Positions 27,264 to 29,815 of a stretch of DNA of 64,000 nucleotides are shown piece by piece (the first letter of the stretch is position 1; each line of letters starts with the position of its first letter). The notes under the pieces are model-generated. The model did no database searches. It was not told the DNA's origin and saw only the letters and a program-made list of their open reading frames with translations. The translations under genes were made by a program, and so were the position numbers. Source of the DNA: an uncultured Pelagibacteraceae bacterium (GTDB taxonomy: Bacteria; Pseudomonadota; Alphaproteobacteria; Pelagibacterales; Pelagibacteraceae); contig CABYPZ010000001.1 in NCBI GenBank assembly GCA_902521005.1, positions 62,001 to 126,000 on the forward strand, written 5' to 3'.

Positions 27264-27658
27264 TAGGTATTATCTATTTACTAATATCTAAAGTATTACA
27301 TTCAATAACTAATTTAAACAATTGTTTTTGTTGAATTTTTATAATATAAAAAATTATAATATTAATACTTATCTAGAATATAAACATGCATAATTAATTT
27401 AATAGGTTCTTAGTTTTTGCTAAATAATGAAAAATGTTAAAAAAACCAACAAAATTAAGCTTTTTTAACCATACTAAATATTAAATTGGTTGAAATATAG
27501 GGTGGTCTAAAAGTGTTGATATAGTTGAATAGTAGAGCGATGCACTAATTGAATATACCATTTAAACGGCCATAGAGGGGTCTATTTTAAGTGTAGCCTC
27601 ATATACGGTACAACTGAAGGGTGAACTTTGCTAATTTACAAGAAATCAATTAAAAAGA
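27264..27658. other. Intergenic region between convergent DMT transporter and ogt
   Basis: About 395 bases with no credible coding frame. The first 220 bases are very AT-rich. From about 27500 to 27640 the sequence is less AT-rich (GGGTGGTCTAAAAG, ACGGCCATAGAGGGGTC, GAAGGGTGAACTTTG). I found no tRNA fold, clear hairpin or known motif there. It could be an untranslated RNA or decayed sequence at the edge of the accessory region. Confidence 0.4.
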
Positions 27659-27982
27659 TCAAAAAACGTTGATTTTAGTGATTTTTTTAATGTAAAAAAG
27701 CCCTAAAATAGGGCTAAATCGTACCTTTTCAGATCTAAGTAATTTGAGCTTTTGCCTAATTCCACCTCTCCCAGAGTAGCCTCCAAGACCTCCATCAGAT
27801 CTAATCACTCTATGACAGGGTATTTTTGGAGCATATGGGTTTTTAGCACAAGCATTAGCTACAGCGCGTGCTGATTTTGGGCTTTTTATACCTATTGCTA
27901 CCTGTTTATAGGTTTTTACTTTACCCTTTGGTATAGTTTTTAGGTATTTCCAGACTTTTAATTGAAATACAGTACCTTTCAT
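27659..27982 (-). CDS. ogt: Methylated-DNA-protein cysteine methyltransferase (C-terminal domain type)
   Basis: Suicidal repair protein that takes the alkyl group from O6-alkylguanine. The ATG at 27982 gives MKGTVFQLKVWKYLKTIPKGK, the usual start of the DNA-binding domain, and overlaps the stop of the mini-gene upstream (TAATG). YKQVAIGIKSPKSARAVANACAKNP and the active site IPCHRVIRSDGGLGGYSGR are complete. There is no N-terminal RNase H-like half, so it is the short form. The last ~20 residues run through a strong terminator hairpin (27692-27715) and are unlike the family, so the C-terminal tail may be a recent extension. Confidence 0.9.
   Translation of the reverse strand: MKGTVFQLKVWKYLKTIPKGKVKTYKQVAIGIKSPKSARAVANACAKNPYAPKIPCHRVIRSDGGLGGYSGRGGIRQKLKLLRSEKVRFSPILGLFYIKKITKINVF
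27692..27715 (-). terminator. Rho-independent terminator inside the 3' end of ogt
   Basis: Read leftward: AGCCCTA (27715-27709), a TTT loop, TAGGGCT (27705-27699), then TTTTTT. Seven perfect pairs plus a U-run make this the clearest intrinsic terminator I noted. It lies upstream of the ogt stop codon, so transcripts ending here would lack a stop. Confidence 0.75.
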
Positions 27983-28155
27983 TAATAAAAATTTAAAATA
28001 ATATAACAAATTAGAAAAAAAACCGCCAAAATTGAGAGATAAACAGTTTCTAAACTTTTACCGACTTTTCTATAGTGTAAAAAAGTAAGAATTGCGAATG
28101 CGATTGATGTGATTAAAAAATATACTGGTTCGATTATTCCATCTATTGAAGGCAT
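27982..28155 (-). CDS. 57-residue membrane protein (unknown)
   Basis: ATG at 28155 (MPSIDGIIEPVYFLITSIAF) to TAA at 27982-27984. There are two hydrophobic segments (about residues 10-27 and 38-55) separated by a basic loop HYRKVGKSLE, the shape of a small helical hairpin in the inner membrane. Its stop codon overlaps the ogt ATG (TAATG), the same coupling used in proven operons of this window, which argues that it is real. No family recognised. Confidence 0.6.
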   Translation of the reverse strand: MPSIDGIIEPVYFLITSIAFAILTFLHYRKVGKSLETVYLSILAVFFLICYIILNFY

Positions 28156-28189
28156 AAATTATAGGTAAATTGTAAGGTTTTCATAAAAA

Positions 28190-28440
28190 AACCCTGTATC
28201 CTTGTACCTTTTCAGGCACAAAGAACAGTAGTTTTGGCACGTCGTTGTATGCGCTACCGCCATGCCTTCCACCTAACGATTTTAGCGCTACTCCGCTAGG
28301 TTTTCTGCCCCCTGGGCTTGAATCTCTCGATTTTTCCCCAGTCGGTCAGTTAAGAGTTGCCTCTTAATTCATTTTCTAATCTATCAGACTGGTTTTATTA
28401 GTGTATCACTTTATTGTTGAAAATCACTAGTTCTTAACAG
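28190..28440 (-). ncRNA. Candidate structured noncoding RNA, GC-rich, class unknown
   Basis: A sharply GC-rich patch in AT-rich surroundings. In the leftward RNA a closing stem pairs AAGAAC-AGUG (28435-28425) with UACU-GUUCUU (28221-28231). Inside are CCAGUC/GACUGG (28392-28387 with 28343-28338), which encloses a perfect UUAAGAG-GCAA-CUCUUAA hairpin (28367-28350), then CCUAGCG/CGUUAGG (28300-28294 with 28278-28272) and GGCAUG/CGUGCC (28266-28261 with 28241-28236). Three stems contain G-U pairs that would be A-C mismatches on the other strand, which fixes the sense strand. A weak hairpin and seven U follow. I could not match RNase P, tmRNA, SRP, 6S or a known riboswitch core. An open frame at 28181-28345 on the same strand has no start codon. 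Confidence 0.5.
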
Positions 28441-28464
28441 GGTTGAATAGTGGGGATAAATTAA

Positions 28465-28818: not shown

Positions 28819-28863
28819 ATATTATTACTAATGATAATTAATTGTTATCAATAGTAATAATAT
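28819..28863. repeat. Long palindrome over the recombinase start codon (operator or recombination site)
   Basis: Arms of 19 bases (28819-28837 and 28845-28863) pair with one mismatch around the 7-base centre TTAATTG. The central 16 bases of the left arm read TTATTACTAATGATAA and of the right arm TTATCAATAGTAATAA. The right arm reaches into the ATG at 28862, and a TTGACT/TATTAC promoter (-35 about 28799) overlaps the left arm. Geometry fits either a repressor operator or a tyrosine-recombinase core site, where two arms flank a 6-8 base crossover. Confidence 0.6.
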
Positions 28864-29815
28864 GAATGAATTAACTACTGATCTAAAATCGCTTCATGAG
28901 GCAACTTTAAATAACCTCAAAAGCTCTAAAGCAAATAATACTTTAAGAGCTTATAAATCAGACTTTAAAGATTTCGGTGCATTTTGCGCAAAGCATGGTT
29001 TAAATTCGTTACCAACAGAGCCAAAAATAGTTTCTTTATACCTGACCTATCTCTCTAAAAATTCAAAAATTAACACTTTAAGAAGAAGATTAGTATCAAT
29101 AAGCATGGTTCATAAGTTGAAAGGACATTATTTAGATACTAAACATCCAATTATTGTTGAAAATTTATTAGGTATAAAAAGGTTAAAAGGAACATTTCAA
29201 AAAGGAAAAAAACCTATATTAATCAGTCATTTAAAATCAATAATTAATGTAATAAATGAACAAAAAACTGAGGAAATTAAGAAGGATCGAGACAAGTCAA
29301 TAATCTTAGTTGGCTTTGGTGGTGGTTTTAGAAGATCTGAACTCATATCAATTGATTATGAGGATCTAGAATTTGTAACAGAAGGTCTTAAAATTACAAT
29401 TAAAAGATCAAAAACTGATCAATTTGGAGAAGGGATGATCAAAGGTCTTCCCTACTTTAGTAATGAAGATTTTTGTCCAGTAGTTAATTTAAAGAAATGG
29501 TTAGAAATTTCTAAAATTAAAACTGGACCAATATTTAGAAGATTTTCTAAAGGATCAACATTAACAGATAAAAGATTAACTGACCAATCTGTAGTTTTGT
29601 TAATGAAAAAATATTTAAATTTAGCTGGTATAGAAAATAAAAATTTTTCTGGTCATAGTTTGAGATCAGGTTTTGCAACTGTAGCTGCAGAGTCAGGTGC
29701 AGATGAAAGAAGTATAATGGCTATGACAGGTCATAAATCAACACAAATGGTAAGGAGATATATTAGAGAAGCTAATATATTTAAAAATAACGCATTAAAT
29801 AAAATTAAACTTTGA
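28862..29815 (+). CDS. Tyrosine recombinase/integrase
   Basis: A 317-residue site-specific recombinase. The N-terminal SAM-like domain (about 10-105) includes NTLRAYKSDFKDFGAFC. The catalytic domain shows all expected residues: Arg157 (FRRSEL), Lys184 (KRSKTD), HSLR at 265-268, His291 (GHKS) and Tyr300 (RRYIREA). It is phylogenetically open: the length suits Xer-like or small integrative-element enzymes, not the cell's core XerC or XerD judging by the divergent N-terminus. A palindrome overlaps its start. It opens the glycan-gene island and overlaps the FkbM gene by four bases. Confidence 0.92.
   Translation: MNELTTDLKSLHEATLNNLKSSKANNTLRAYKSDFKDFGAFCAKHGLNSLPTEPKIVSLYLTYLSKNSKINTLRRRLVSISMVHKLKGHYLDTKHPIIVENLLGIKRLKGTFQKGKKPILISHLKSIINVINEQKTEEIKKDRDKSIILVGFGGGFRRSELISIDYEDLEFVTEGLKITIKRSKTDQFGEGMIKGLPYFSNEDFCPVVNLKKWLEISKIKTGPIFRRFSKGSTLTDKRLTDQSVVLLMKKYLNLAGIENKNFSGHSLRSGFATVAAESGADERSIMAMTGHKSTQMVRRYIREANIFKNNALNKIKL

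What the first reader, a model, noticed from the sequence alone, without database searches (positions are those of the whole stretch)
28190..28440. Unassigned GC-rich structured RNA in the accessory region
A ~250-base GC-rich island in AT-rich DNA folds into a closed multi-branch structure on the minus strand: a closing stem, a stem enclosing a perfect GCAA tetraloop hairpin, and two further hairpins, followed by a U-run. G-U pairs in three stems would be A-C on the other strand. It sits between mini-genes, next to a recombinase. I know of no match to RNase P, tmRNA, SRP, 6S or a known riboswitch core. It may be a regulatory leader of the 57-aa gene/ogt pair or an independent RNA.
Basis: partly seen in the sequence, partly recalled or inferred. 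Interest (0 to 1): 0.7.

Follow-up and report, generated by a model that had tools for sequence, protein, structure and literature searches.

The report
Known SAR11 marine RNA, IMES-2

Summary
Window 28374-28234 (minus) matches Rfam RF02035, IMES-2, over all 141 positions (160.3 bits, cut-off 54.7, E 3.5e-42), so novelty ends there. In detail: the minus strand folds far better than shuffles (z -6.8), and 29 of 39 pairs show two-sided changes across 89 distinct copies.
What it is: a stand-alone RNA of about 185-190 nt, with its own conserved promoter region and a 3' hairpin. It is not a leader of the 57-aa/ogt genes.
Apparently not in the Rfam structure line: a kissing contact between the two 3' hairpin loops (GCGCUA/UAGCGC), changing to GUAC:GUAC, GCAC:GUGC and UCGCU:AGCGA in relatives.
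Distribution: one copy per genome, only Pelagibacteraceae (SAR11), about half of sampled genomes; none found in viral contigs or phages.
Context: in the window's genus it sits in the slot between a tyrosine recombinase and ogt; related genomes lack it at the same locus (at least 5-7 gains or losses among 23 loci). In two other genera it follows mnmA.
Likely mode of action, inferred: a trans-acting structural or protein-binding RNA; ligand unknown.

The parts
28234..28374 (-). IMES-2 RNA core (Rfam RF02035 positions 1-141)
   Evidence: cmscan 160.3 bits, E 3.5e-42, gathering 54.7
28350..28367 (-). P1 hairpin with GCAA (GNRA) tetraloop
   Evidence: 100% of cells paired, compensatory changes; loop GCAA in 86 of 86 distinct copies
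28305..28349 (-). P2: two-part stem with GAAA/CAAG internal loop, capped by P2b with a GAGA tetraloop (GCAA in three copies)
   Evidence: 7 of 11 P2 pairs with two-sided changes
28271..28301 (-). P3 hairpin; loop holds GCGCUA (28288-28283)
   Evidence: 8 of 8 pairs with two-sided changes, 95.7% of cells paired
28236..28266 (-). P4 hairpin with an always non-canonical G.A pair (A.G in 3 copies); loop holds UAGCGC (28256-28251)
28251..28288 (-). Kissing-loop pseudoknot: P3 loop GCGCUA (28288-28283) with P4 loop UAGCGC (28256-28251)
   Evidence: covariation GCGC:GCGC, GUAC:GUAC, GCAC:GUGC, UCGCU:AGCGA
28185..28233 (-). 3' hairpin (28233-28192) and U-run (28191-28185): intrinsic terminator and RNA 3' end
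   Evidence: stable 3' hairpin in 113 of 114 distinct copies, with U-run in 84 of 114
28375..28459 (-). Conserved promoter region: TTATCCCCACTATTCAA (28459-28443), AGTGATAC (from 28410), extended -10-like TGATAGATT (28386-28378)
   Evidence: A/GGTGAT or AGCGAT begins 34-37 nt before the RNA core in 114 of 114 copies across three contexts; start site inferred, not mapped
28862..29815 (+). Tyrosine recombinase, head-to-head with the RNA; constant neighbour in the window's genus only
   Evidence: PF00589 E 1.4e-20; contexts; also present in genomes without IMES-2
27659..28009 (-). ogt-like gene (methylguanine methyltransferase DNA-binding domain), far border of the recombinase-ogt slot
   Evidence: PF01035 E 2e-31
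27982..28155 (-). 57-aa membrane-like ORF; lies on either side of IMES-2 in different genomes
   Evidence: no Pfam match

Best explanation
The element is the IMES-2 RNA (RF02035) of a SAR11 bacterium. Shown by sequence comparison: one copy per genome; conserved promoter-like region directly upstream; P1-P4 with GNRA loops and a P3-P4 kissing contact; a 3' terminator-like hairpin; no conserved coding frame; limited to Pelagibacteraceae; in the window's genus an accessory unit gained or lost in the recombinase-ogt slot. Inferred: RNA polymerase starts at the foot of P1 and stops at the U-run, giving a 185-190 nt RNA that folds into a compact body. It most likely acts in trans as a structural RNA that binds or sequesters a protein, rather than as an antisense RNA or a cis leader (this mechanism step about 0.4 likely; binding partner unknown). 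The confidence given is for identity and anatomy.
For: Family hit. Covariation in every helix, 0 of 500 shuffles as high. Kissing pair 96.2% of cells, 15 cells with two-sided change, 0 of 500 shuffles on either measure; mean loop complementarity 5.82 against 4.90 (sd 0.16) with loops dealt anew. Unpaired columns at least as conserved as paired ones (0.883 against 0.827), GCAA invariant. Promoter motif fixed at 34-37 nt upstream and 3' hairpin in 113 of 114 copies, in three different gene contexts. Recombinase-ogt slot with and without IMES-2 in close relatives: hom 94.9%, permease 92.7%, EamA 92.0% DNA identity.
Against: No expression data could be read here; promoter and ends are inferred. 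The 3' U-run is missing in 30 of 114 copies, so termination there may differ. GCGC loops are self-complementary, so loop-loop pairing between two molecules is not excluded. On the stricter counts (number of kissing pairs with two-sided change, further pair types) 37 and 57 of 500 shuffles reach the observed value. Patchy presence argues against an essential role. No protein or ligand partner was tested.
Confidence: 0.88

Rival explanations
1. It is a cis-regulatory leader or riboswitch of the 57-aa/ogt genes.
For: It lies directly upstream of them on the same strand in the window and in most g1 loci.
Against: A terminator-like hairpin stands before the genes; 28 of 78 copies follow mnmA with a convergent gene downstream and no ogt; ogt keeps its place without IMES-2 in L082-L092.
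Confidence: 0.04
2. It is a base-pairing (antisense-type) small RNA that regulates mRNAs, perhaps with Hfq.
For: Stand-alone promoter and terminator; patchy accessory presence as seen for many sRNAs.
Against: Conserved letters lie in stems, GNRA loops and a loop-loop contact rather than in an exposed seed; 30 of 114 copies lack the U-tail that Hfq usually binds.
Confidence: 0.25
3. It is SAR11's version of a housekeeping RNA such as 6S.
For: The Rfam 6S model finds nothing in nine Pelagibacteraceae genomes while it finds Caulobacter and E. coli.
Against: IMES-2 lacks the long bulged rod of 6S; genomes without IMES-2 also show no 6S match; the SRP RNA is separate; presence is patchy.
Confidence: 0.04
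4. It is an attachment site or by-product of the neighbouring recombinase.
For: Always 0.2-0.5 kb from the recombinase in the window's genus.
Against: In two other genera and in g2 it lies elsewhere with no recombinase beside it; the recombinase persists without IMES-2.
Confidence: 0.03

Closest known systems
Rfam RF02035, IMES-2 RNA motif
   Same: Full-length match, same helices; function not stated in the Rfam line.
   Different: Nothing that excludes membership. Added here: P3-P4 kissing contact (not in the structure line printed by cmscan), promoter region, 3' hairpin, divergent g2 form (62-69 bits), genomic contexts.
Other structured-RNA candidates of marine metagenomes and 'Ca. Pelagibacter ubique' (PMC2704228, PMC2864571)
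   Same: Found as GC-rich intergenic islands in AT-rich marine genomes.
   Different: The main text of PMC2864571 holds no IMES entry. In the part of the HTCC1062 intergenic table of PMC2704228 that was read, no IMES-2-like entry was seen.

Membership tests
RF02035 IMES-2 | Covariance-model score above the curated cut-off over the full model | tested here: met
   160.3 bits against 54.7, positions 1-141
RF02035 IMES-2 | P1-P4 helices kept by compensatory change among relatives | tested here: met
   29 of 39 pairs with two-sided changes, 93.8% of cells paired
RF02035 IMES-2 | Expressed as an RNA | not testable with these tools
6S RNA (RF00013) | Match to the 6S model | tested here: not met
   No 6S match at the site at E up to 1 nor in nine genomes
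Riboswitch or cis leader | Constant downstream gene under its control | tested here: not met
   ogt in one context, convergent 233-aa gene in the other
Protein-coding gene | Conserved open frame | tested here: not met
   0-2 of 114 copies open per frame; core lengths mostly 140, 141 and 142 nt
Kissing-loop RNA | Loop-loop complementarity kept by compensatory change | tested here: met

The most novel reading that the evidence does not exclude
IMES-2 in SAR11 is a cargo-like RNA gene, swapped in and out of a recombinase-linked slot next to cell-surface glycan genes, whose kissing-loop body binds a host protein and gives a conditional benefit (for example in surface variation or phage exposure).
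Probability: 0.2. Interest if true: 0.7.

Novelty: already known. Interest (0 to 1): 0.35.

Why it matters
To my knowledge IMES-2 has no assigned function. Tying it to SAR11, to one copy per genome, to closed single-contig genomes, and to close relatives that differ in having it gives natural plus/minus pairs for testing, and the kissing contact gives a mutational test of the fold.

Tried and rejected
Weak R1 hits in genomes without IMES-2 (G112, G183, G195, G103, G116, G092, G161) proved to be rpoA-rplQ coding sequence. IMES-2 in viruses: none by pattern in IMG/VR contigs nor by blastn in phage records. Another known RNA in seven IMES-2-negative loci: none, only tRNAs and SAM-V riboswitches. 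The upstream TTATC...ATTCAC pattern as a shared regulon motif: no matches, pattern too strict, it misses even the window's own copy. The recombinase palindrome as a paired att site: only one copy per genome. The Nature 2009 paper (10.1038/nature08586), from memory the original description, is not held, so whether it drew the kissing contact is unchecked.

Full report
Identity. The minus strand at 28374-28234 matches Rfam RF02035 (IMES-2) end to end at 160.3 bits; with only 1.3 kb searched and lax filters, the other matches are at chance level and far below their families' cut-offs. The family is confined to SAR11 in what was searched: 139 of 297 genomes of the order, all in one family, one copy each; in a class-wide sample of 385 only the window's genome and two of its family matched. 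None in viral contigs (pattern) or phage records.

Fold. In 89 distinct aligned copies 93.8% of pair cells hold and 29 of 39 pairs change on both sides, above all 500 shuffles and far above slid versions. That alignment was fitted to the model, but a plain MAFFT alignment of 32 copies gives the same picture. P1 carries GCAA in all 86 copies checked, P2b GAGA or, in three copies, GCAA, and P4 an invariant non-canonical pair that is G.A in 83 and A.G in 3. The P3 and P4 loops are complementary (GCGCUA/UAGCGC) and stay so when the letters change: GUAC:GUAC, GCAC:GUGC, UCGCU:AGCGA. Because GCGC and GUAC are self-complementary, these alone could mean dimers; GCAC:GUGC and UCGCU:AGCGA are not, and favour loop 1 with loop 2, in one molecule or between two. 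One subgroup (UCGCUG with UAGCGC) keeps only four Watson-Crick pairs and a G-U. The structure line printed for RF02035 does not show this contact; I could not check the original paper.

A transcript of its own. Upstream, a block with TTAT..C...ATTCAC, CAAC.A.aaAGTGATAC and an extended -10-like TGnTA is conserved whatever the neighbouring gene; A/GGTGAT or AGCGAT begins 34-37 nt before the core in all 114 distinct copies. Downstream, a hairpin stands in 113 of 114 (median -20.7 kcal/mol in 48 nt, shuffled -6.3), with a U-run in 84 of 114. No frame is conserved. So it is neither a leader nor a coding gene.

Where it sits. Of 78 contig loci examined, 28 have mnmA | IMES-2 | a convergent 233-aa gene (one of them with its downstream side not matched); the rest fit recombinase, small membrane ORF, IMES-2, ogt as far as the contigs reach (a few lack one flank), save L121, a degenerate-looking copy. 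In the two g2 genomes it follows a nuclease-like gene (named by eye). The recombinase is widespread, also without IMES-2. Eleven IMES-2-negative loci of the window's genus keep the recombinase-ogt-EamA-permease order with an empty slot or other cargo. L044 and L082 (without) are 92-95% identical in the flanking genes EamA, permease and hom, and the unit lies between the membrane ORF stop and the ogt start. On a tree of permease plus EamA, presence needs 7 changes, 5 forced by well-supported branches, no better clustered than shuffled labels; recombination of the locus itself could inflate this. The window and L140 carry the membrane ORF on the other side of IMES-2. The recombinase side opens into glycosyltransferase genes; in HTCC1062 a 'probable phage integrase' lies among such genes in hypervariable region HVR2 (PMC2217521), a likely but untested counterpart.

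How it works. Shown: anatomy, covariation, distribution, context. Inferred: a compact trans-acting RNA that binds a protein. The reasons are conserved unpaired letters, GNRA loops and the loop-loop contact, the lack of a constant partner gene, and no exposed conserved seed. The partner and the benefit are unknown; patchy presence says it is dispensable.

Verdict. A sound observation of a known family. The additions (kissing contact, promoter and 3' anatomy, accessory slot) are useful, moderately interesting, and testable.

Noticed in passing
window 27514-27626 (+): A second conserved non-coding block of about 110 bp between the convergent ogt and EamA genes, aligned in all 23 loci compared (with and without IMES-2), fixed internal spacing in most, no Rfam match, no RNA-structure signal on either strand (alifold near 0); looks like a conserved DNA or regulatory element.
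   Followed up: partly
window 28824-28858: Near-perfect palindrome just before the recombinase start (ATTACTATTGATAA-CAATTAA-TTATCATTAGTAAT on the minus strand), one copy per genome in six genomes; in L038, L046, L050 both arms change together (TTTCCGATAA/TTATCGGAAA). Possible recombinase core site or operator.
   Followed up: partly
L036 (G017) against window: The block EamA-ogt-IMES-2-recombinase is inverted relative to the permease and glycosyltransferase genes, so this locus rearranges.
   Followed up: no
L083, L086, L088, L089, L090 recombinase-ogt slot: Other cargo in the slot of IMES-2-negative genomes: a 158-aa membrane-like protein and a 145-aa acetyltransferase-like protein, identified by eye only.
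   Followed up: no
L121 263-394: A degenerate-looking IMES-2 copy (132 nt, P4 loop altered) with the recombinase downstream in the other orientation.
   Followed up: no
nine Pelagibacteraceae genomes: The Rfam 6S model finds no 6S RNA in any of them, although it finds Caulobacter; SAR11 may have lost 6S or carry a diverged form.
   Followed up: no
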